The notes under the pieces were generated by a model. The model was not told the DNA's origin and ran no database searches. It was given only the letters and a program-made list of their open reading frames with translations. Shown here in pieces: positions 11,491-63,271 of a DNA stretch of 64,000 nt. The DNA lies in NCBI RefSeq assembly GCF_028640845.1, contig NC_080539.1, positions 163,568,236 to 163,632,235 on the forward strand, written 5' to 3'. Both the position numbers and the translations under genes were made by a program. This DNA comes from Ahaetulla prasina (taxonomy: Eukaryota; Chordata; Lepidosauria; Squamata; Colubridae). Position 1 is the first letter of the stretch. Every line of letters begins with the position of its first letter.

Positions 11491-11870
11491 TGTCAGGGTT
11501 CCAAGTAACACCCCCAACGAAATCAAACTCAGAGGTTTGCAATTCCTCAGAGCTAACTTTTATTAGAGATGTCATATTGGCACATCTGGGATAACCCGAA
11601 TCTGAGAGCTTCTGGGTTTCCTTACCCAAAAGAAAGTTCAAGATCTTGCCCACTTCTCCCACATGTCCACCACATGTCCAATCAGTTCCTTCATGTACAG
11701 AAGATAACTTCCACTTTCTTCTCTGCACATGGCCTTGAACTTCTCTGCAAAGTTTTGTTGTGGCTAATTCTACTTCACTCATACAATTCCCCCTCCCAAC
11801 TTCCCACGGTAGGATTGTGGCAGGCCTAGATCCTGAAGGCACCAAGGTAATATGGTTTCCACGCCTGACA
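11491..11870 (-). mobile_element. solo LTR, family B
   Basis: A 380-bp element with termini tgtcagg..cctgaca and perfect 5-bp duplications gttgg (11486-11490, 11871-11875). Read on the minus strand it starts tgtcaggcgtggaaaccata, closely resembling the first 20 bases of the LTR of the ZNF740-carrying element at 17507, so the two families are related. A minus-strand AATAAA-like signal lies near 11565. The 152-aa ORF through it is not a gene. Confidence 0.85.
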
Positions 11871-17307: not shown

Positions 17308-17506
17308 GCTCAGTGGAGAAGTTTTACTGCAGGTTCTAGTCCCACCAGGCCCAAGGTTGACTCAGCCTTCCATCCTTTATAAGGTAGGTAAAATGAGGAC
17401 CCATATTGTTGGGGGCAATAAGTTGACTTTGTATATAAATATACAAATAGAATGAAGACTATTGCTAACATAGTGTAAGCCGCCCTGAGTCTTCGGAGAA
17501 GGGCGG
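17308..17506 (+). mobile_element. tRNA-derived SINE with L2-type tail, left part
   Basis: Contains the squamate SINE body (aaggttgactcagccttcca near 17352, attgttgggggcaataag near 17405), then gtgtaagccgccctgagtct and the hairpin arm gggcgg ending at 17506. The gypsy element enters exactly at the base of this hairpin. The SINE continues at 19911. Confidence 0.75.
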
Positions 17507-17586
17507 TGTCAGGCCTGGAAACCATACTAGACTTTAGGTTTCCAGACGCTGCCACATTTTTCCCCTGAGGGGAAGAAGGGGGGCTG
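17507..17586 (+). repeat. 5' LTR fragment (first 80 bp only)
   Basis: Identical over 80 of 80 bases to 19541-19620. The match ends at ggggggctg, after which this copy continues as cagtgggaatagc (cDNA) and the 3' copy as aggggtatgg (LTR). A short G-rich microhomology may mark the switch point. Confidence 0.88.
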
Positions 17587-18049
17587 CAGTGGGAATAGCA
17601 GCAGCGGCAGCAGCCGTGGTGGTGTTTCGCTTTCGTGTCTCCCCGGGAGAGGGGAGAGCCGGCACGCCGGGAGTTTGAACTCAGGTGGAAACTGGAGGTG
17701 GACATACAGCAATATTGTGGCTTCTTTACAAGGAAGACCTCAGCACCCTTTCTCCCAGCAAGGGCCATCCTGAAGGGGGATTTAGGGTTGGGGTGACTCA
17801 TCTGCAAGAGCAGCACAGTCTGTAATTTTCCTCAGCTTTTAACAAGGCTGGGAAAACTTGCTGCACGCCATTCTGGACTCTCCGACTCCAGAAAGATGTC
17901 AACAAAGTGGAAGGTATTGGACGGGACCGGTGCAGAAACGATTTACTGAAAAATCTTTGTAGTCATAAAATTCTTTCCTGAGCAAGAGAGAGAGAGAAAG
18001 CGTAAGGACTTGGCATAATCTCCCTGTTGAGGACTGTCAGACTAACGCG
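17587..18049 (+). other. captured ZNF740 5' UTR
   Basis: GC-rich at first (agcagcagcggcagcagcc), joining the ZNF740 reading frame without an intron. No LTR or gag homology is visible. That it is the host mRNA leader is inferred from position; a snake ZNF740 transcript would confirm it. The start of the chimera's RNA is unknown. Confidence 0.6.
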
Positions 18050-18610
18050 ATGGTTCAGGCGAGCCTCCTGGCCTGCGAGGGACTCTCCGGTGTTTGCCTG
18101 GTGCCAACAGTTGCCAGCAAGAAGATGATGCCGAAGCAAAGCTCTAAGCAGGTGGAGAACGGGGAGAGAGGGGGTGCACCGGACATGCTGAGTCATCGCA
18201 AGGAGAGTGAGAAATCACGTAGTCGGAAGGAAGAAGAAACAGCAGAAGGGTCTCCTCCTAAAAAATCCCTTAAAAAGGTAATGGTGATAGAGCAGAATGG
18301 ATCCTTCTAGGTCCGGATTCCCAAGAATTTTATTTGTGAGAACTGTTTTGGAGCGTTCCGGAGCAGTTACCACCTCAAGAGACATATCCTTATTCATACT
18401 GGAGAGAAACCTTTTGAGTGTGATGTCTGTGACATGCGCTTCATCCAGAAGTACCATCTGGAGCGCCACAAACGTGTCCACAGTGGAGAGAAGCCATATC
18501 AGTGTGAACGCTGCCTGCAGAGCTTCTCCAGGACAGACCGGTTGCTGAGACACAAATGAATGTGCCAGGGCTGCCCCAGCAAAGCATCTGACTCCCAGCT
18601 ACTGCTTTAG
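18050..18610 (+). pseudogene. ZNF740 processed (intronless) copy, two nonsense codons
   Basis: ZNF740 is a small nuclear C2H2 zinc-finger DNA-binding protein (about 190 residues in mammals). Here 186 codons plus stop can be read in one frame without a frameshift. The N-terminus MVQASLLACEGL and the basic/acidic middle (SRSRKEEE, PPKKSLKK) match the remembered ZNF740 layout. Finger 1 has C96, C99, H112, H116; finger 2 has C124, C127, H140, H144; finger 3 has C152, C155, H168, C172 (C2HC). TGEKP and SGEKP linkers separate them. Codon 87 (TAG, 18308) and codon 170 (TGA, 18557) are nonsense, the latter probably CpG decay of CGA. Translation would give only an 86-residue finger-less peptide. The real gene has several exons, so this is a cDNA copy. 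Confidence 0.85.
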
Positions 18611-19221
18611 GGTTGGGCCATAGAAGAGGCTTTTAAGAAGCTGCTGGGAAGTCCACCAGGGGCTCTGGGAGTGGGCTTGTTCACCTGCTTGTGTTTTGTG
18701 CCCGAGTTTGCTTCCTGAGCCTATTCCTGTGGAAGGGGCAGAGCTGAGTGGGCACAGACTTCAACTATGGTCTTGACACTGTAAATACATGGAGGACGAA
18801 GCAGGGCTGGCTCCCAGCCATTGGGAAGCTCACTGCAGTTGTGGATAAACATTGCCGGGGTGCGCTTTCTGTTTCTGTTTTAGTTCGTTTTCTTTTCTTT
18901 TTCTTTTCTTTTCTTTTTTTTGAAATTATCACCATTTGCCTCAGGAAAGGCTTTGAAAGCATTGCGGGGGGGCCTTCCGCGAGCCATTCCAACCAGATCC
19001 GGTGCTCTCCATTAACAGATGATCTGCCAGCTGGCCTGATATTTGGACTTGCAAAAAAAAAAAAAAGTGGAAGGACAACAGGCAAATATTTTATGAGAAA
19101 CAGTGATCACCGCCAGTCAAGCAGTGAACTTTTTTTTGCGGAGCTGATCCTGGCAGGATACTGTGGCCTGGGATCACAGGAGTCTGTCTCATTTACGCTA
19201 GGCCGTAAGGCCTACAGGACT
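18611..19221 (+). other. captured ZNF740 3' UTR and junction with gypsy sequence
   Basis: Non-coding DNA continuing from the ZNF740 stop: a T/C-rich run near 18888-18920 and a 14-A run at 19053-19066. Either the UTR runs to the gypsy frame at about 19222, or the A-run is the trace of the mRNA poly(A) tail and 19067-19221 belongs to something else. The sequence alone does not decide this. No AATAAA immediately precedes the A-run, which favours the first reading. Confidence 0.5.
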
Positions 19222-19473
19222 TTCCCTCCCCCACCACCCTTGATAATCCAAGGTGAAACCCACTATGAAATCAAGAAAATCCTTGACTCTAGACTATACA
19301 GAGGTCAATTACAATATTTAGTCCACTGGAAGGGGTATCCATTATCTGAATCTACTTGGGTCAAAAGTTGGAAAGTAAATGCAGACAATTTGATTAAACA
19401 ATTTCACGACACTTTCCCTGACAAACCTAAAAAACCTCTTGGAGAGGGGAGGGGGGATAGAAGGGAAGTGTAG
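19222..19473 (+). pseudogene. gypsy integrase C-terminus with chromodomain
   Basis: Reads FPPPPP then HYEIKKILDSRLY, LQYLVHWKGYP and STWV, the fold signature of a chromodomain as found at the end of integrase in chromovirus-type gypsy elements, where it steers integration to marked chromatin. The frame ends at a TAG (19471-19473), followed within about 70 bases by the 3' LTR, the normal position for the end of pol. Everything upstream in pol is missing. The 241-aa open frame starting at 18748 joins UTR sequence to this domain by chance. Confidence 0.82.
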
Positions 19474-19524
19474 ACCATTGACACTCTTCTTTATCAACTC
19501 TTTGTTTTCTTTCCTAGCTTCTTT

Positions 19525-19540
19525 TCCAAGGGGGGACGCC
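19525..19540 (+). promoter_or_regulatory. polypurine-tract-like sequence
   Basis: ccaaggggggacgcc sits directly before the 3' LTR start (tgtcagg). A purine-rich tract here primes plus-strand DNA synthesis in LTR elements. Confidence 0.6.
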
Positions 19541-19910
19541 TGTCAGGCCTGGAAACCATACTAGACTTTAGGTTTCCAGACGCTGCCACATTTTTCCCCT
19601 GAGGGGAAGAAGGGGGGCTGAGGGGTATGGTAACATTCTTCAAGCGGTCAAGGTCGGATGGTGTTCCCATCTGCAGGAAGAGTGGCGAGAAGATATTCGA
19701 ATGAACTGGGAGAACGTGGGACCATGTGACCATCAAAGGGGTCAGGGGGGTGGGACTCTTGGGGTTTGTATAACTGGGAAAAGAATCCGGAAGTTCAGTT
19801 TTGGAATTTCACTCATCGTGTGCCAGTTTCCTCATGCTAGTAAAGAACTCTGAAAAACAATGGCTTCTGAGTTTTTTTTATGCAGAAGAGGTTTTTCTGG
19901 AACCTTGACA
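19541..19910 (+). repeat. 3' LTR of the ZNF740-carrying element
   Basis: 370 bp, tgtcaggcctgg..aaccttgaca. Contains a promoter-like ggggtttgtataactgg (about 19758) and ends next to tgcgg (19911-19915), the right target duplication. Related to the solo LTR at 11491. Confidence 0.82.
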
Positions 19911-19941
19911 TGCGGAATATAAATGTAAATTTTAAAAAAAA
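19911..19941 (+). mobile_element. tRNA-derived SINE, right part (tail)
   Basis: tgcggaatataaatgtaaat followed by an A-rich tail continues the SINE interrupted at 17506: gggcgg plus (g)aatataaatg restores the hairpin-then-tail order seen intact at 50772-50810. Confidence 0.7.
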
Positions 19942-20099
19942 GTACTAGTATATATGTACTAGAAAATGGTACTAGAACCCTCCCAACAATCTCTATCATT
20001 ATCACTTAAAACAATATGTTGATATTCATCTACAGTTGCTGTAATCCTAGAGGTGCTTGGCTATGTGAAGAATAGCAATACATATGCCACCCCCACCCC

Positions 20100-28906: not shown

Positions 28907-31150
28907 CCATATTTTTCGGAGTATAAGACGCACCGGAGTGTAAGATGCAGCTTAGTTTTTGGGGAGAAAAATAGGCGGGGGGGGGGGGGGGAAATCTGCC
29001 TATCAGATGTTCATCTGACTAGCGTTCTAAGTCTGGTCAGCTTCAGCACATTAGTTTGCTGGTTTTTATCCCCTGCTTGGGGATAAAAAACAGCTTCTTA
29101 TTTATTTATTTATTTATTATTCGAATTTATATACCGCCCTATCTCCCAAAGGACTCAGGGCGGTTCACAGGCATATAAAACATCAATATCAATATACAAA
29201 TTAAAATAATCCTTAAAAAACTTATTCTAGCACCCGAATTATTAAAAATAGAAATATAAATATCAAATATAAAATATTAAAATCAATTTAAAACCCCTCT
29301 AAATTTAAAAATCTAAGCCAGTCCTGCACAGATGAATAAATGTGTCTTAAGCTCGCGACGGAAGGTTCGAAGGTCAGGAAGTTGACGGAGTCCTGGGGGG
29401 AGTTCGTTCCAGAGGGTGGGAGCCCCCACAGAGAAGGCCCTTCCCCTGGGCGTCGCCAAACGACACTGCCTAGCTGACGGCACCCTGAGGAGTCCCTCTC
29501 TGTGAGAGCGCACGGGTCGGTGAGAGGTATCTGGTCGCAGTAGGCGGTCCCGTAGATAACCCGGCCCTATGCCATGGAGCGCTTTAAAGGTGGTCACCAA
29601 AACCTTGAAGCGCACCCGGAAGGCCACAGGTAGCCAGTGCAGCCTGCGCAGGATGGGTGTTATCACGGGAGCCACGAGGGCTCCCTCTATCACCCGCGCA
29701 GCCGCATTCTGAACTAACTGCAGCCTCCGGATGCCCTTCAAGGAAGCCCCATGTAGAGGCGTTGCAGTAATCCAGGCGAGGCGTCACAAGGCGTGAGTGA
29801 CCGTGCAAAGGGCCTCCCGGTCCAGAAAGGCGCAACTGGCGCACCAGGCGAACCTGGTAAACGCTCTCCTGGAGACGGCCGTCAAATGATCTTCTAGAGA
29901 CAGCCGTTCATCCAGGAGGGCGCCTAAGTTCGCACCCTCTCCATCGGGGCCAATGACTCGCCACCGATGGTCAGCCGCGGATTTAGCTGACTGTGCGGGA
30001 TGCGGCATCCACAGCCACTCTGTCTTGGAGGATTGAGCTTGAGCCTGTTTCTCCCCATCCAGACCCGTCGGCCTCCAGGCACCGGGACAGCACTTGATAA
30101 CCGTTGGGGTGGTCGGTGTGGAAAAATACAGCTGGGTGTCATCCGCGTACAGCTGGTACCTCACACGAACCCACTGATGATCTCACCCAGCGGCTTCATG
30201 TAGATGTTGAACAGAAGGCGAGAGGATCGATCCTCGGCACCCCACAAGTGAGGGGCCTCGGGCCGACCTCTGCCCCCCTGTCAACACCGACTGCGACCGG
30301 TCGGAGAGATAGGAGGAGAACCACCGATAAACGGTGCCTCCCACTCCCAATCCCTCCAACCGGCGCAGCAGGATACCATGGTCGATGGTATCGAAAGCCG
30401 CTGAGAGGTCTAATAGGACCAGGGCAGAGGAACAACCCCTATCCCTGGCCCTCCAGAGATCATCCACCAACGCGACCAAAGCCGTCTCCGTGCTGTAACC
30501 GGGCCGGAAACCGGACTGGAGCGGGTCTAGATAGACAGTTTCATCCAGGTGTAAGGGAAACTGATATGCCACCATACTCTCAACAACCTTCGCCGCGAAG
30601 CGAAGGTTGGAGACCGGACGATAATTATCTCAAACAGCGGGTCAGGAAGGCTTCTTGAGGAGGGGCCTCACCACCGCCTCTTTCAAGGCGGCCGGAAAGA
30701 CACCCTCCACCAAAGAAGCACTCGTAATCGCCTGGAGCCAGCCTCGGGTCACCTCCTAAAGCACAGCTTCTAAAGCACAACTGATCTTTGGAGAAAGAAG
30801 CAATGAGAAAAGCAGGCAAGTTAAGGCTGAAAAAAATCATTACAGCTGAGAGTCGGAGCAGGCAAAGCACTTCACTCGCTAGCACCTGGTTAGGGCTGAA
30901 AAAAAGCTTCACAGCTGAGAGTCGGAGGGAGCAGGCAAAGCACAGAAGATTGCTTCACTGAAAAAAAAGCTGCTAAAGCACAGCTGAGAGTCGGAGAGAG
31001 CAGACAAAGCATGGAGATTGCTTCACTCGCTAGCACCTCGTTAGGGCTGGAAAAAAGCTTTAAAAAACTTACATTCGGAGTATAAGACGCACCCAAATTT
31101 CCCTCCCTTTTAGGAGAGGAAAAAGTGTGCCTTATACTTCAAAAAGTATA
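28907..31150. mobile_element. inverted-repeat DNA element split by an L2 LINE
   Basis: Left end ccatatttttcggagtataa and right end attcggagtataagac..cttatacttcaaaaagtata carry inverted gtcttatactccgaaaaata sequence, repeated inside the right end. The part right of the L2 (30758-31080) is built of imperfect direct repeats of roughly 110 bp with aaagcacagctgagagtcgg as the recurring core. A G-run (28977-28992) lies near the left end. Non-coding; superfamily not determined. Confidence 0.65.
29099..30757 (-). mobile_element. 5'-truncated L2-clade LINE
   Basis: Minus-strand copy of the LINE at 58871, covering the second half of reverse transcriptase and the C-terminal domain. Readable blocks: LVLLDLSAAFDTIDH and RWFSSYLSDRSQ (minus ORF 30183-30575), MRYQLYADDTQLYF with the catalytic YADD intact (start of minus ORF 29784-30164), and RPVRSHREGLLRV..LWNELPPGLRQ (29313-29741). 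The 3' UTR hairpin is at 29134-29163 and an AAATA tail marks the left end. acagcttct occurs on both sides (29090-29098, 30763-30771) and is the probable target duplication. Frameshifts separate the blocks. Confidence 0.83.
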
Positions 31151-34188: not shown

Positions 34189-34698
34189 TGTGTCTTGCCC
34201 GCTCTCACTGCAGCCGGGGCCTTCTTCTTCCGAACGCTGAGGAATGTCCTAGTATGCCTCCCGGCCCCAGCCCTGGCTCCATGCCCAGACAGGAGGAAGC
34301 ACCTCCCGGCCCCAGCCCTGGCTCCATGCCCAGGCAAACGGAGCAACTAGACCCCTCCCCCTCCCCCACAGCATGTGAGCCTGAGGGAGGTCAATTACCA
34401 ACAGCTGCCGACTGGAGTGACCCTCGCTTCAGAAGAATTGATAGGCGGCGGCGTCAGAAGGAAGGGAGGGGCAGGCCTGGATAAGTGCTGAGTCATGGAG
34501 CCACACCCCATGGCCTATATAAAGGATCTGCTTTCTGGCATTCTCTGAGTCAGGCAAAGTCAAACTTATCTTGCTGAAGTCACTTACTGGTCTCCTGCCT
34601 GCTCTGAGGACTTTGCTAGGACTTTGGGCAGAGCTGCAGAGGCAAGCCTGATTCGGATTTCCCTGACCCGGCCGTCAGCGGAGGAGTGGGACACGACA
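34189..34698 (+). mobile_element. solo LTR, family A
   Basis: 510 bp, tgtgtcttgccc..gggacacgaca, perfect 5-bp duplications aataa (34184-34188, 34699-34703). A good TATA box (ggcctatataaagg) lies at about 34513, so transcription would start near 34545. Tandem ccccagccctggctccatg units occur at 34264-34330. Closest to 42425. Confidence 0.88.
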
Positions 34699-42424: not shown

Positions 42425-42943
42425 TGTCGTGTCCCACTCCTCCGCTGACGGCCGGGTCAGGGAAATCCGAATCAGGCTTGCCTCTGCAGCTCTGCCCAAA
42501 GTCCTAGCAAAGTCCTCAGAGCAGGCAGGAGACCAGTAAGTGACTTCAGCAAGATAAGTTCGACTTTTGCCTGACTCAGAGACTGCCAGAAAGCAGATCC
42601 TTTATATAGGCCATGGGGTGTGGCTCCATGACTCAGCACTCATTAAGGCCTGCCCCTCCCTTCCTTCTGTTGCCTCCGCCTATCCAATCTTCTGATGCGA
42701 GGGTCACTCCAATCAGCTGTTGGTAATAAACCCTCCTCAGGCTCACATGCTGTGGAGGAGGGGGAGGAGTCTAGCTGCTCCGTTTGTCTGGGCATGGAGT
42801 CAGGGCTGGGGCCGGGAGGTGCTCCTTCTTCTGCAGTTTGTCTGGGCATGGAGCCAGGACTGGGGCCGGGAGGCATACATTCCTCTGTGTTCGGGAGCAG
42901 ATAAGAAGGCCCCGGCTGCTCTGAGGGCGGGCAAGACACAACA
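42425..42943 (-). mobile_element. solo LTR, family A
   Basis: 519 bp, on the minus strand tgttgtgtcttgccc..gggacacgaca. Perfect 5-bp duplications gagtc (42420-42424, 42944-42948). TATA box on the minus strand near 42604 (cctatataaagg). Nearly the same sequence as 34189, in opposite orientation. The 98-aa minus ORF lies in its U3 part. Confidence 0.9.
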
Positions 42944-45870: not shown

Positions 45871-46370
45871 AAAGATACCTTAGTCAAACTTAAACTTTCT
45901 CAGACTGCATCTATCAAGTAATCTTAAGCATATTTTCCACAATTTAGTCATACTTGATTTTTTGATAAGTGTTCTTAAGATTGGAGCCCTAACTTTATTT
46001 CCTGATTTTTGCAAATGAAATGGTGAGACTTCAGCCTATCTACAGGTGAAACTCAAAAAATTAGAATATCATGCAAAAGTTCATTTATTTCAGTAATGCA
46101 ACTTTAAAGGTGAAACTAATATATGAAATAGACTTATTACATGCAAAGTGAGATAGTTCACGCCTTGATTTGTCATAATTTTGATGATTATGGCTGACAG
46201 CTTATGAAAACCCCAAATTCACAATCTCCGAAAATTAGAATATTGTGAGAAGGTTCAATATTCTAGGCTCAAAGTGTCCCACTCTAATCAGCTAATTAAG
46301 CCATAACACCTGCAAAGGGTTCCTGAGCCTTTAAATGCTCTCCCAGTCTGGTTCAGTAGGAATCACAATC

Positions 46371-47395: not shown

Positions 47396-47674
47396 GTTTT
47401 CTACGAGCTCTTCGGCTGAAGAGCTCGTAGAAAACATGTTTTTTAAGGTTCTGGTGATGAGGAACTCAGCTGGGATCGTCAGAGGAGCCTTTTAAAACCT
47501 TTTTTTTTTACAACCTTTTTGGCCGAAGAGGTTGTTAAAAAAAAAAACTTTTAAAGGGTTCTGACGATCTCAGCTGAGCCACGGGATCATCAAAGGCTTT
47601 TTTTTTACTTTTAAAGGCATGTTTTCGGCTGAAGAAAAACTGCTTTTAAAAGTAAAAAAAAAACCCTGATGATG
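47396..47674. repeat. three tandem hairpins with related loops
   Basis: Hairpin 1: 18-bp perfect stem 47396-47413 / 47418-47435, loop ggct. Hairpin 2: imperfect arms about 47465-47516 / 47529-47577, loop around ttggccgaag. Hairpin 3: arms about 47586-47626 / 47632-47674, centre ttttcggctgaagaaaa. The centres (ttcggctgaa, ggccgaag, ttcggctgaa) are related and the arms share A/T runs and cttttaaa. Confidence 0.85.
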
Positions 47675-47803
47675 GTGGGGCTCAGCAGAGGCAGGGGGCG
47701 GGGCCAGGGATTTTTGCTACTGGTTCTCCGAACCACCTGCCGCCATTGCTACCGGATCAGGCGAGCCAGTCCGAACTGGGAGCATTTCACCCCTGCTTCA
47801 AAT

Positions 47804-48474
47804 GTCATATTCCTCTTGTCAAGCCGCTCCTGAACAACAAACAACATCAGAAGTGTCTTACCTGGGCTAAAGAAAAAAAGAAATGGTCTGTTGCTCAATG
47901 GTCCAAAGTCCTCTTTTCTGATGAGAGCAACTTTTGCATCTCATTTGGAAACCAAGGACCCAGAGACTGGAGGAAGAATGGAGAGGCACACTCTGCAAGA
48001 TGCTTGAAGTCCAGTGTGAAGTTTCCACAGTCTGTGTTGATTTGGGGAGCCATGTCATCTGCTGGTGTTGGTCCACTGTGCTTCATTAAGTCCAGGGTCA
48101 ACACAGCCGTCTACCAGGAGATTTTGGAGCATTCATGCTTCCTTCCGCAGAGGAGCTTTATGGGGATGCTGACTTCATTTTCCAGCAGGACTTGGCAACT
48201 GCCCACACTGCCAAAAGTACCAAAACCTGCCCATGGGATTACTGTGCTTGATTGGCCAGCAAACTCGCCTGACCTGAACCCCATAGAGAATCTATGGGGC
48301 ATTGCCAAGAGAAAGATGAAAGACATGAGACTGAACAATATAGAAGAGCTGAAGACCACTATTGAAGCATCCTGGTCTTCCATAACACTTCAGCAGTGCC
48401 ACAGGCTGATAGCATCCATGCCATGCCGCATTGAGGCAGTAATTGATGCAAAAGGGGCCCAAACCAAGTACTGA
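47804..48474 (+). pseudogene. Tc1 transposase, catalytic C-terminal part
   Basis: Continues directly after the hAT duplication: HIPLVKPLLNN, VLFSDESNF (first catalytic Asp of the DD34E triad), WGAMSSAGVG, then PANSPDLNPIENLWG (third catalytic residue, Glu) and a normal C-terminus ending AKGAQTKY and TGA at 48472. Between about 48130 and 48225 the open frame is shifted; the family block holding the second catalytic Asp (QQD) is present in the DNA but out of frame, and a second shift restores the frame. The protein would be inactive. Confidence 0.86.
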
Positions 48475-48753
48475 ATACATATGCATGCTTATGCTTTTCA
48501 GAGGTCCGATATTGTTCTATGTAAAATCCTTGTTTTATTGATTTCATGTAATATTCTAATTTTTTGAGATTGTGAAACTGGGGTTTTCATGAGCTGTCAG
48601 CCATTATCATCAAAATTATGACAAATCAAGGCATGAACTATCTCGCTTTGCATGTAATGAGTCTATCTCATATATTAGTTTCACCTTTTAAGTTGCATTA
48701 CTGAAATAAATGAACTTTTGCACAATATTCTAATTTTTTGAGTTTCACCTGTA

Positions 48754-50749: not shown

Positions 50750-50809
50750 TTTAATAGTAACATAGTGTAAGCCGCCCTGAGTCTTCGGAAAAGGGCGGGA
50801 TATAAATGC
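50750..50809 (+). mobile_element. LINE/SINE 3' tail with hairpin
   Basis: gtgtaagccgccctgagtct then gggcgggatataaatgcaaa. Hairpin at 50772-50798. Identical in type to the tail of the SINE at 17308. Nothing upstream was recognised, so only the tail was inserted. Confidence 0.65.
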
Positions 50810-50867
50810 AAATAATAATAATAATAATGATGATGATGATGATGATGATGATGAAGAAGAAGAAGAA
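50810..50867. repeat. compound microsatellite (AAT)n(GAT)n(GAA)n
   Basis: AAT units to 50828, GAT units to about 50853, GAA units to 50867, growing out of the A-rich end of the preceding tail. Confidence 0.93.
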
Positions 50868-59310: not shown

Positions 59311-60260
59311 GGCCGCGGCTTGTATTTAGTTGCTGGGAAGCCGCGGCTGGGTTTCTCTCCCTGACATTCAGCGTTCGCTCGGCTATTTCGGATAATTTGG
59401 GGGCTTACCAGCTCTCCTTGGCTCCCCTGGTCCTGTTTTTGGATTTGGTGGATGGCCATGGGGCGAAGGGCTGTGAAGGATCCCCCTGGTGGCCCCTGCT
59501 GGAGGTGTCCCGACCTAGTTTGGCCTGGTTGGGCCCAGCTAGGCCTGCTTCTTCCCGGATTAGGAAGTTACATTGCCATCTGTAACATTGTCACCTGCAT
59601 TTGTCATCTTGCACTTTGTATGGCCGGCCGGAGTTTTCTGGGTTCGGCCATCTTTGGAACTTCCCGGGAGGATGATTGGAGACCGACTGTTGCAGTGGGA
59701 CTTTATCTTGAAACATCTACTGTGGAACCATCTACCTCGGAAATAGCTGAGACGCCATGGACGGAGAGAGGAATACCACCTCTATTAGATTATGGATTTT
59801 AGGACTGAGCTTGGTGCAGAGTAGTAATAACTTTCTACCATCAGACTACATCTGCTTATTGTACTATCTTGTGTCAGCGTTAAGCCAGCCACCATCCGAA
59901 GATATTCTGGCAGATGGGTATCCATTAGGATTTGGCATTACATCCTGCCACCCCAGACATTATACTACTACCTCTCGCTGTCTTCTTTCTCCTGCTTATG
60001 CTTGTGAACATTTATGCGATATTCTGCTTTGGAACTCTTGCGCCTGCGAGGTGCCCCCGCCTTGCAGGAATGGCCCGCCGCATTATCAAGGGCCGGCCTC
60101 AATGACGGGTCTTGGGACCCACAGAGGTGGCATGCGAAAAAAAAGAGCCTTTGGGGGTTTTTAGATAGGGCTTTTTTAAGGGGTGGGAGGGGCAGGGCGG
60201 GTGTTGGGGGTAGCCCGTCGGGTGGGGAGCCAGTCCTTGCGCGTGCTCGCGACGGTTTTT
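59311..60260 (+). other. L2 leader between monomers and endonuclease frame
   Basis: No conserved domain was recognised. A short ORF1 could have been here, but the frames (59133-59585, 59452-59802, 59757-60164) show no zinc knuckle, coiled coil or other mark. Confidence 0.45.
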
Positions 60261-61545
60261 TAATGGGTTCGGAGGTTAGGGGGGGAGATTGCGTTCCTGC
60301 TGGTGAGGGTGGTCTGATTAGCACGGTAAGTGGGAGGGGCAGATATGGCGGAAGGGGGGGACCATATCGTTTTGGGGGGTCGCGCGGTCGATGTTTGCAG
60401 GCGATCGCGCGCCCCGATCCCCCGTCCTTTTCCCGTTCCCCGGATGGTCGAGACCCTCAGAGCCTGGGCCTTCGGCTGATGTTATGCAACGCACGGTCCA
60501 TAGTCAATAAGGCCCCCCTAATACACGATCTTATTCAGGGGGGCGCTGCGGATCTTATAGGCGTTACGGAAACCTGGCTGGGCACGGAAGGGGGTGTGCC
60601 CCTTGTTGAGATGTGCCCGCCAGGTTTCCGTGCATTCCATCAGCCGAGGGCCCAGGGCAGGGGTGGAGGGGTGGCGGTTGTGATTAGAGAGAGCCTAGAG
60701 CCGAGGGAGACCACTGTTCCTCAGATTGCTGGGTGCGAATCCCTCTTTGTGAGATGGGGTCATAGGTGTCAGGTGGGATTACTGATCGCGTACCTGGCTC
60801 CTTGCTACGTGACAGTCGCCCTGCCCGAGCTCCTGGAGGTGCTGGCCGGGTGGCAGTTGAGACCCCCAGACTTTTAGTCATGGGGGACTTTAACTTGCCA
60901 TCTTCCGGCTTGTCATCGACAGCAGCTCGGGAGTTCATGGCTTCCATGACGGCCTTGGACCTGACCCAAGTAGTTGATGGCCCTACTCACATTGGGGGTG
61001 GCACTCTGGACTTGATTTTTGTCTCTGGTCAGTGGTTGAGAGATCTGGACTTGAAGGAAATAGTCATTGAACCTTTGTCATGGTCAGATCACTCTCTTCT
61101 TCGCCTGGACTTTCTGACCGCTACTCCCCACCGCAGGGAGACGGAGCCGATGCGTTGGTTCCGTCCCAGGCGCCTGATGGACCCGGAGGGGTTCCGGACG
61201 GAGCTTGGGCCATTCCCTGAGGGTCTGGCTCACGGCTCGGCTGAGGAACTTGTTGCGGCCTGGGAACAGGCCGCGGCGGGGGCCTTAGACCGAGTCGTGC
61301 CTTTGCGGCCTCTGACCCGGCGCAGGTCCCAACCGGCTCCTTGGTTCTCCGAGGAGCTGCGAGGGATGAAGCGCCAGAGAAGACGCCTAGAGAGTTCCTG
61401 GAGGTCTAGCCGTTCGGAGGCTGATCGGACACTAGTGAAGTCCTATACTAGGACTTACCTAGTGGCATTGAGGAAGCGAGGCGTAGCTACGCCTCCTCCC
61501 TCATTGCATCGGCAGATAACCGCCCAGCCGCCCTGTTTCGGGTGA
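60260..61545 (+). pseudogene. L2 ORF2, apurinic-like endonuclease domain and linker
   Basis: Nicks target DNA to prime reverse transcription. Endonuclease motifs in order: LMLCNARSIVNK (Asn, about 60477), DLIGVTETWL (catalytic Glu, about 60552), GGGVAVVIR, then after a frameshift at about 60860, VMGDFNLPS (about 60879) and SWSDHSLLRLDF (catalytic Asp-His pair, about 61078). The 287-residue and 259-residue open frames overlap at the shift (60766-60877). All catalytic motifs survive in the DNA. Confidence 0.83.
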
Positions 61546-62601
61546 CTCGCTCCCTTTTACATCAGGGGGAGCGGGATGACCCGTTGCAGGGACGTGCTGA
61601 GGAGTTTAACGGTTATCTATACGATAAAATCGTTCAGCTTCGGGATGGTCTGGACCAGAATTGCAGTGACGCGGGTGAGACGGCTGAGGCGGTCTTGGTG
61701 ACATTTTATGGGATGAGTTTGACCCTGTGGCTCCCGAGGACATGGACAGGTTGTTGGGTAGGTTGAATGCCACCACGTGTTTACTGGACCCGTGCCCCTC
61801 CTGGTTGGTGCTGGCCACTCAGGAGGTGACACGAGGCTGGCTCAGGCAATAACAAGTGCTTCTTTGGTGGAGGGAGTCTCCCCGGCCGCCTTGAAGGAGG
61901 GGGTGGTGAGACCCCTCCTCAAGAAGCCGTCCCTGGACCCGGCTGTTTTAGGTAATTATCGTCCGGTCTCCAACCCGCTCATGCGAAGGTTGTAGAGAGT
62001 ATGGTGGCATATCAGTTTCCCTACACCTGGATGAAACTGTCTATCTAGACCCGTTCCAGTCCGGCTTCCGCCCGGTTACAGCACTGAGACGGCTTTGGTC
62101 GCGTTGGTGGATGATCTCTGGAGGGCCAGGGATAGGGGATGTTCCTCTGCCCTGGTCCTGTTAGACCTCTCAGCGGCTTTTGATACCATCGACCATGGTA
62201 TCCTGCTGCGCCGATTGGGGGGATTGGGAGTGGGAGGCACCGTTTATCGGTGGTTCTCCTCCTATCTCTCCGATCGGTCGCAGACGGTGTTGACGGGGGG
62301 GCAGAGGTCGGCTCCGCGGCGCCTCACTTGTGGGGTGCCGCAGGGGTCGATCCTCTCGCCCCTTTTGTTCAACATCTATATGAAGCCGCTGGGTGAGATC
62401 ATCAGTGGCTTCGGTGTGAGGTACCAGCTCGACGCTGATGACACCCAGCTGTACTTTTCACACCGGGCCACCCCAACGAAGCTATCAAGTGTTGTCCCGG
62501 TGCTTGGAGGCCGACGGGTCTGGATGGGGAGAAACAGGCTCAAGCTCAATCCCTCCAAGACAGAGTGGCTGTGGATGCGGCATCCCGGTACAGTCAGCTG
62601 A
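61546..62601 (+). pseudogene. L2 ORF2, reverse transcriptase domain
   Basis: Fingers motif LLKKPSLDPAVLGNYRPVSN (about 61915-61974), then a small deletion/shift, FQSGFRP, A-motif LVLLDLSAAFDTIDH with two Asp (about 62155-62200), RWFSSYLSDRSQ, B-motif GVPQGSILSPLLFNIYM (62334-62384) and C-motif DADDTQLYF (about 62432-62458) where YADD is expected. The copy at 29099 keeps YADD, so Tyr-to-Asp is a lesion of this copy. Frameshifts at about 61545, 61690, 61980 and 62060. Confidence 0.85.
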
Positions 62602-62616
62602 GTCCTCGGCTGACTG

Positions 62617-63271
62617 TTGGGGCAGTCATTGGCCCCGATGGAGAGGGTGCGCAACTTGGGCGTCCTCCTGGATGAACGGCTGTCTTTGGAAGATCATTTG
62701 ACGGCCGTCTCCAGGAGAGCTTTTTACCAGGTTCGCCTGGTGCGCCAGTTGCGCCCCTTTCTAGACCGGGGTGCCCTATGCACGGTCACCACGCCTCGTG
62801 ACGTCTCGCCTGGATTACTGCAATGCTCTCTACATGGGGCTCCTTGAAGGGCATCCGGAGGCTGCAGTTAGTTCAGAATGCGGCTGCGCGGGTTATAGAG
62901 GAGCCCTCGTGGCTCCCGTGATGACACCTATCCTGCGCAGACTGCACTGGCTACCTGTGGCCTTCCGGGTGCGCTTCAAGGTGTTGGTAACCACCTTTAA
63001 AGCGCTCCATGGCATAGGGCCGGGTTATCTACGGGACCGCCTACTGCTACCGAATACCTCTCACCGACCTGTGCGCTCTCACAGAGAGGGACTCCTCAGG
63101 GTGCCGTCAGCTAGACAGTGTCGTCTGGCGGCGCCCAGGGGAAGGGCCTTCTCTGTGGGGGCTCCCACCCTCTGGAACGAACTCCCCCCAGGACTCCGTC
63201 AACTTCCGGACCTCCGAACCTTCCGTCGCGAGCTTAAGACGCATTTATTCACCTGTGCAGGACTGGCTTAG
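62617..63271 (+). pseudogene. L2 ORF2, C-terminal domain
   Basis: Blocks APMERVRNLGVLLDERLSLE (62632-62691), LHWLPVAFRVRFKVLVTTFK (about 62945-63000), RPVRSHREGLLRVPSARQCR and LWNELPPGLRQLPDL, ending FRRELKTHLF and a stop at 63271. Two frames are needed, with the shift between 62770 and 62850. Known L2 elements share this block; its role is not defined. Confidence 0.82.

What the first reader, a model, noticed from the sequence alone, without database searches (positions are those of the whole stretch)
17507..19910. Host zinc-finger gene ZNF740 captured as cDNA inside a gypsy-type LTR element
Seen: LTR head, intronless three-finger frame with UTRs, gypsy chromodomain, purine tract, complete LTR and a 5-bp flanking repeat, in that order on one strand. 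Known: LTR elements and retroviruses can acquire host mRNA by template switching, but clear host-gene transductions by vertebrate gypsy elements are rarely described. Inference: ZNF740 mRNA was packaged with element RNA, reverse-transcribed with it and integrated as one unit. A plain LINE-made retrocopy would lie outside LTRs with a poly(A) tail and its own duplication.
Basis: partly seen in the sequence, partly recalled or inferred. Interest (0 to 1): 0.92.

Follow-up and report, generated by a model that had tools for sequence, protein, structure and literature searches.

The report
Host gene copy inside jumping element
In what is likely a snake genome, an intronless copy of the host gene ZNF740, broken by two stop codons, sits between a short stub and a complete terminal repeat of a gypsy-type jumping element, likely because the element's copying enzyme switched onto the gene's messenger RNA before the joint product went into the chromosome as one piece.

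Summary
On one strand, in order: 80 nt identical to the head of the right LTR; an intronless ZNF740 cDNA; a Ty3/gypsy chromodomain tail; a purine tract; a complete 370-nt LTR; all inside a 5-bp target duplication with one mismatch (GGCGG/TGCGG). Joining the outer flanks recreates a dispersed repeat that is uninterrupted at nine other places of the same genome, so the chimera entered as one insertion. A related solo LTR elsewhere in the genome has nearly the same ends and a perfect 5-bp duplication. I found no terminal poly(A) tail and no inner duplication, so a LINE-made retrocopy is not supported. I read the left end as likely a premature plus-strand transfer during reverse transcription; a later deletion is the main rival. 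The parent gene and intact elements could not be searched, because the genome search did not answer in 16 tries.

The parts
17440..17506 (+). left half of the dispersed repeat that the chimera interrupts
   Evidence: joined flanks 17440-17506 + 19916-19945 align across the joint to 8 of 24 sampled loci and, from 17466 on, to 50758-50824
17502..17506 (.). target site duplication, left copy GGCGG
17507..17586 (+). left LTR stub: first 80 nt of the LTR only
   Evidence: 100% identical to 19541-19620
17587..18049 (+). ZNF740 5' UTR of a spliced mRNA
   Evidence: 17592-17615 encodes GIAAAAAA as in the Naja naja protein P0050, a ZNF740 by sequence; MSTKWK at 17896-17913; the rest by continuity
17896..17913 (+). 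alternative first coding segment MSTKWK, followed by GTATTG, apparently the donor used by other isoforms
   Evidence: same six residues start the snake isoform P0012 and the gecko isoform P0003
18050..18610 (+). ZNF740 coding sequence, intronless, with two internal stops
18308..18310 (+). internal stop TAG at codon 87 (Q in all 9 relatives compared)
18557..18559 (+). internal stop TGA at codon 170 (R in all 9 relatives compared)
18611..19204 (+). start of the ZNF740 3' UTR (assigned by continuity; end uncertain, 19190-19228)
   Evidence: none of five poly(A)-signal hexamers in 18612-19240; no Pfam domain in the open frames tested
19053..19066 (+). internal run of 14 A, the only run of 8 or more A in the insert
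   Evidence: no exact word of 6 or more nt shared with the left junction region
19205..19540 (+). 3' end of a Ty3/gypsy element: end of pol with chromodomain (19264-19410), then the tail to the LTR
   Evidence: PF00385 E 1.3e-13; 34 of 69 residues identical to the C-terminal part of polyprotein P0123, the match starting at 19228
19528..19536 (+). polypurine tract AAGGGGGGA, 4 nt before the LTR
   Evidence: sequence; role inferred from position
19541..19910 (+). complete right LTR, TG...CA, 370 nt; TATAA at 19769, AGTAAA at 19839
   Evidence: related solo LTR L013:9564-9950 shares the first 14 nt and all but one of the last 8
19911..19915 (.). target site duplication, right copy TGCGG (4 of 5)
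19911..19945 (+). right half of the interrupted dispersed repeat

Best explanation
A spliced ZNF740 mRNA was likely packaged with the RNA of a chromodomain Ty3/gypsy element, the reverse transcriptase likely switched from the end of pol into the ZNF740 3' UTR and copied up into the 5' UTR, and the chimera was inserted as one unit with a 5-bp target duplication. Shown: the order of parts, the intronless copy, the insertion as one unit, the 80-nt stub. Inferred: because the minus strand ended in host sequence without a primer-site complement, the normal second strand transfer could not happen; the plus strand, started at the purine tract, copied only 80 nt of U3 and then moved onto the end of the host cDNA. 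That gives a left end that is a true LTR terminus (good for integrase) but lacks R, U5 and primer site. The product has no TATA-like site in its left end and a broken ZNF740 frame; it is most likely a dead, single-use copy without function.
For: Left stub and right LTR head identical, 80 of 80 nt, as expected if both were copied from one U3. The stub begins at the LTR terminus and is followed within 13 nt by sequence that matches a snake ZNF740 5' region, with no room for R, U5, primer site or gag. Outer flanks join into an uninterrupted dispersed repeat at 8 of 24 sampled loci and at one place in the window, with 4 of 5 bp duplicated; the related solo LTR has a perfect 5-bp duplication GGGAT. 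None of five poly(A)-signal hexamers lies in the copied 3' UTR and there is no A run at the 3' junction, as expected for entry inside a 3' UTR by template switch. Six inferred exon boundaries are crossed without an intron.
Against: The parent gene was not reached, so neither breakpoint nor its microhomology is fixed. The Naja naja protein P0050 has 73 residues (about 219 nt) upstream of the point that matches the junction; if that gene model is right, the copy stops inside the 5' UTR and not at the mRNA's 5' end, so the minus strand did not simply run off the template. Similarity between the LTR just past the stub and the ZNF740 5' UTR is not clearly above chance (82 of 1590 positions score as well at 12 nt, 135 of 1590 at 16, 1081 of 1590 at 20). 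One mismatch in the target duplication. No copy of this element beyond the related solo LTR was found in 231,000 sampled bases. A deletion after insertion would leave the same left end.
Confidence: 0.55

Rival explanations
1. Ordinary two-switch LTR-mediated retrocopy (complete left LTR, primer site, then host cDNA) that later lost the rest of the left LTR, the primer site and the leader by a genomic deletion.
For: Template switching between element RNA and host mRNA is the published model (PMC5408686, passages of section 2.2 and legend of its Figure 3); that this yields a complete left LTR is my inference from ordinary strand transfers. A deletion would also leave a stub joined to ZNF740 sequence, and would explain a junction inside the 5' UTR if the Naja model P0050 is right.
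Against: Needs a second event, with one end inside the LTR and the other inside the host 5' UTR; the insert otherwise looks young (80 of 80 LTR bases equal; 5 of 186 residues changed). No trace of R, U5 or leader remains.
Confidence: 0.25
2. DNA-first capture: a gypsy element (or its 3' part) lay in or just after the ZNF740 gene, a read-through ZNF740 transcript ending in the LTR was packaged, and only the left end was made in reverse transcription.
For: One RNA would carry ZNF740, pol tail and LTR in the right order, with no switch needed at the 3' side; the copied 3' UTR lacks the five poly(A)-signal hexamers tested.
Against: No direct evidence; needs an insertion at the parent locus, which was not reached.
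Confidence: 0.15
3. LINE-made processed pseudogene that landed in an older LTR element, with later deletion of the element's interior.
For: A run of 14 A lies at 19053-19066; LINE reverse transcriptase sequences are present in the window.
Against: About 140 nt without a Pfam match in the open frames tested follow the A run before the pol tail; no exact word of 6 nt or more is shared between 17562-17599 and 19060-19090 or 19170-19225; the rest of the left LTR and the element's 5' part, which should follow the copy, are absent.
Confidence: 0.03
4. Assembly or library artefact at one of the two inner junctions.
For: No raw reads could be examined; which contig holds the window is not known to me.
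Against: No N in the window; four of the five contigs looked at are 34 to 378 million bases long, the fifth 68,135; the left stub equals the LTR head to the terminus and the outer flanks reconstitute one repeat with a target duplication, which a random mis-join would not give.
Confidence: 0.02

Closest known systems
LTR-mediated retroposition in metazoans (Tan et al. 2016, Genome Res; paper not held, known here only through passages of PMC5408686 and PMC8277862)
   Same: Host mRNA copied by template switching with an LTR element and integrated by the element's machinery; reported in mosquito, zebrafish, chicken and Drosophila.
   Different: Here the left LTR is an 80-nt stub joined straight to host 5' UTR, without primer site; the host is likely a snake and the element has a chromodomain. 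Whether Tan et al. list stub-ended cases I could not see.
Maize Bs1 element, which made retrocopies of three cellular genes (PMC5408686 passages)
   Same: Host cDNA made by an LTR retrotransposon.
   Different: Plant element; from recall it keeps both LTRs. This copy does not.
Acute transforming retroviruses (oncogene capture; recalled, no call)
   Same: Host mRNA sequence replaces most of gag-pol and junctions arise through RNA recombination.
   Different: Those keep complete LTRs and spread (recalled); this one is a broken single insertion as far as seen.
LINE-made processed pseudogenes
   Same: Intronless gene copy in a chromosome.
   Different: No terminal poly(A), no own target duplication found, LTR-element sequence on both sides within one 5-bp duplication.

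Membership tests
LTR-mediated retrocopy | intronless copy of a host mRNA | tested here: met
   six exon boundaries inferred from gene models P0003, P0006, P0012, P0016, P0020, P0025, P0050, P0106, P0120 are crossed without an intron
LTR-mediated retrocopy | LTR-element sequence on both sides, same strand, inside one target duplication | tested here: met
   stub 17507-17586, tail and LTR 19205-19910; flanks join into an intact repeat; duplication 4 of 5
LTR-mediated retrocopy | no terminal poly(A) tail and no own target duplication | tested here: met
   the parent 3' UTR was not available to prove that the inner A run is not a tail
LTR-mediated retrocopy | microsimilarity between element and mRNA at the switch points | tested here: inconclusive
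   downstream similarity not clearly above chance; parent sequence across the breakpoints not available; a GCTG overlap with the Naja-like frame is only suggestive
conventional two-switch product (my inference from ordinary strand transfers; not spelled out in the passages read) | complete left LTR followed by a primer binding site | tested here: not met
   only 80 of 370 LTR bases at the left; ZNF740 5' UTR follows
Ty3/gypsy chromodomain element | chromodomain at the C-terminus of a pol polyprotein | tested here: met
   PF00385; match to the C-terminal part of P0123, whose listed Pfam accessions include PF00078 (reverse transcriptase), PF00665 (integrase core, name recalled) and PF00385
Ty3/gypsy chromodomain element | order protease-RT-RNase H-integrase | not testable with these tools
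   those parts are absent from this copy and no intact element was found in 231,000 sampled bases
Ty3/gypsy chromodomain element | LTR with TG...CA ends, purine tract beside it, short target duplication | tested here: met
   related solo LTR L013:9564-9950 with GGGAT on both sides
LINE-made processed pseudogene | 3' poly(A) tail and flanking target duplication of its own | tested here: not met

The most novel reading that the evidence does not exclude
The left end is a fossil of a premature plus-strand transfer: a gypsy reverse transcriptase left U3 after 80 nt, before ever reaching R or the primer site, and rescued a host cDNA that ended in the mRNA's 5' UTR. If so, one junction at the 3' side is enough to turn a packaged host mRNA into an integrase-ready molecule: a second route of LTR-mediated gene copying whose products (a U3 stub at the left, a full LTR at the right) would be missed by searches that ask for two LTRs.
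Probability: 0.47. Interest if true: 0.62.

Novelty: new variant of a known kind. Interest (0 to 1): 0.47.

Why it matters
Retrocopies of non-mammalian chordates have been ascribed mainly to LINE1 (PMC3136929, passages; the lizard was left out of that comparison). A clean case with target duplication, complete right LTR and a U3-stub left end indicates that a chromodomain gypsy element can do it in this lineage, and the stub gives a testable signature for a shorter reverse-transcription route. Its practical use is a search pattern: U3 stub, intronless host cDNA, pol tail, purine tract, full LTR. The copy itself is most likely inert.

Tried and rejected
LINE retrocopy inside an older element: tested for an inner target duplication and poly(A), none found. 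Functional retrogene: rejected as unlikely because of two internal stops and no TATA-like site in the stub. Microhomology at the left switch from LTR bases past the stub: not clearly above chance. A chimera that spread: LTR and ZNF740 pieces were compared with 24 sampled stretches (231,000 bases; 717 N in the first 201,000): 0 ZNF740 matches, 0 matches of the pol tail, 1 related solo LTR; the sample is far too small to exclude other copies. Protein searches for the pol tail: 3 hits of 14 candidates with a long carrier query, none of 7 candidates with the natural frame; neither fixed the 3' breakpoint. Exact 32-nt LTR-head pattern: 0 in viral contigs and 0 in genome contigs; neither is expected to hold snake DNA, and both answers say that records of the window's own genome may be left out. 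PDB sequence searches only repeated what Pfam says (zinc fingers, chromodomains). Rfam: 0 matches in the window at gathering scores. ZNF740 retrocopy in print: one search, terms ZNF740 + retrocopy, 0 papers.

Full report
What is there. On the + strand between 17507 and 19910 lie five parts in order. First, 80 nt (17507-17586) identical to the first 80 nt of the LTR at 19541-19910. Second, an intronless ZNF740 copy from 17587 to about 19204. Third, the end of a Ty3/gypsy pol with a chromodomain (PF00385, E 1.3e-13), whose best match among long proteins is the C-terminal part of a polyprotein (P0123, source jgi) whose listed Pfam domains include reverse transcriptase, integrase (name recalled) and chromodomain (34 of 69 residues identical). 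Fourth, a purine tract AAGGGGGGA at 19528-19536. Fifth, the complete 370-nt LTR. GGCGG stands before and TGCGG after.

Identity of the gene. A protein search with the 180-residue read-through gave 880 hits among 937 candidates, of which 120 were listed; the best named hits are ZNF740. I fetched 15 of the 120 and compared 9 residue by residue, stops counted as differences. King cobra (P0006) differs at 5 of 186 residues, Ahaetulla (P0025) at 4 of 173; the other three snakes at 6 of 157 (P0050), 7 of 173 (P0012) and 8 of 173 (P0016), three of them in each case at the alternatively spliced N-terminus. Four lizards differ at 12 of 186 (P0002), 16 of 186 (P0003), 15 of 185 (P0005) and 14 of 173 (P0033). 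V88 is shared with 5 of 5 snakes and 0 of 4 lizards compared. With a first contig of 377,630,096 bases this makes a snake the likely host; the genome itself is unnamed. Codons 87 and 170 are stops where all nine relatives have Q and R; the frame has no frameshift.

It is a copy of a spliced mRNA. Gene models begin, skip or insert at six places: before ASLL, VENG, SHRK/GHRK, VMVI/VVVI, EKPF and SFSR. I take these as exon boundaries; the parent DNA was not seen. The copy runs through all six. Upstream, 17896-17913 encodes MSTKWK, the alternative first coding segment of P0012 and P0003, followed by GTATTG, apparently the donor those isoforms use; so the copied mRNA was probably the longer splice form that starts with MAQ (inference). 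Further upstream, 17592-17615 encodes GIAAAAAA, as in the N-terminal part of the Naja naja protein P0050, which its source calls hypothetical but which is ZNF740 by sequence. The Naja peptide reads AAVGTVAVGIAAAAAA and the window AAVGIAAAAAA, with the first A codon (17583) inside the LTR stub; this hints at a short shared GCTG at the switch, but only at protein level. Against a simple run-off at the mRNA 5' end, P0050 has 73 more residues upstream of that point.

It entered as one piece. The flanks without the insert, joined after one copy of the 5 bp, match 50758-50824 at 60 of 67 bases across the joint, and eight of 24 sampled stretches of the same genome at 87 to 95% across the joint. So a dispersed repeat, which resembles a SINE or LINE tail, was interrupted by a single insertion. 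A related solo LTR, found at L013:9564-9950, shares the first 14 nt with the window's LTR, ends CCCTGACA (the window's ends CCTTGACA), is 387 nt long and has GGGAT on both sides. That supports both the LTR limits in the window and a 5-bp duplication, here with one change.

Not a LINE retrocopy. The only run of 8 or more A is at 19053-19066; about 140 nt separate it from the pol tail, without a Pfam match in the open frames tested. None of five tested poly(A)-signal hexamers lies in 18612-19240. No exact word of 6 nt or more is shared between 17562-17599 and the sequence after the A run (19060-19090) or around the 3' junction (19170-19225). The parent 3' UTR would be the full test.

How it most likely arose. 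Shown: composition, order, single insertion. Inferred: packaging of ZNF740 mRNA, a switch of the reverse transcriptase from the end of pol into the 3' UTR, and copying up into the 5' UTR. The published model has template switching between element RNA and host mRNA guided by microsimilarity and a plus strand started at the purine tract (PMC5408686, passages); that an enzyme which switches back to the element leaves a complete left LTR is my inference. Here only 80 of 370 LTR bases are present at the left, and host 5' UTR follows. The simplest one-step account is that the plus strand, begun at the purine tract, copied 80 nt of U3 and then moved onto the end of the host cDNA. Both ends would then be proper LTR termini for integrase. 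A later deletion, or a read-through transcript from a parent gene with a gypsy insertion, remain possible; my weights are 0.55, 0.25 and 0.15, with 0.03 for a LINE origin and 0.02 for an artefact. That ZNF740 and element sequence were joined through RNA and inserted together is common to the first three (0.95).

Consequences. The TATA-like site (LTR position 229) and the poly(A)-like AGTAAA (299) are absent from the stub, and there is no room for a primer site. The copy is not expected to move again, and the ZNF740 frame is broken. It looks young: 80 of 80 LTR bases equal, few residue changes; I give no date.

Novelty. LTR-mediated retroposition is known. I read passages of PMC5408686 and PMC8277862; Tan et al. 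2016 itself is not held, so I cannot say whether stub-ended cases are in it. Passages of PMC3136929 ascribe non-mammalian chordate retrocopies mainly to LINE1, the lizard excepted from that analysis. Passages of PMC8303610, a review of snake repeats, name Gypsy but in the places shown no host-gene capture. Paper searches are (listings only, except the papers named). I rate it a new variant of a known kind, with the stub as the variant.

Limits. The genome search did not answer in any of 16 calls (list in Tried and rejected), so the parent gene, intact elements and other junction copies were not searched. The sample was 24 stretches, 231,000 bases, 23 of 10,000 and one of 1,000.

Noticed in passing
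11491-11684 (-): Fragment 82% identical (196 aligned columns) to the last 194 nt of the solo LTR at L013:9564-9950, so the LTR group has another remnant in the window.
   Followed up: partly
L013:9564-9950: Solo LTR of 387 nt, nearly the same ends as the window's LTR, flanked by a perfect 5-bp duplication GGGAT.
   Followed up: yes
60008-63271 (+) and 29313-30629 (-): Two LINE copies (endonuclease PF03372/PF14529 at the first, reverse transcriptase PF00078 at both), 85-97% alike in inverted blocks; near their 3' ends lies a tail motif similar to that of the repeat hit by the chimera.
   Followed up: partly
47656-48474 (+): Open frame of 272 residues with a DDE_3 domain (PF13358, E 2.4e-12); a Tc1/mariner-type transposase remnant by recall.
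   Followed up: no
46041-46244 and 48550-48753: Inverted repeat of 204 nt, 94% complementary, flanking the transposase frame; possibly the ends of that DNA transposon.
   Followed up: no
34293-34698 and 42425-42873: Set of inverted repeats, 76-99% complementary in blocks, about 8 kb apart; not identified.
   Followed up: no
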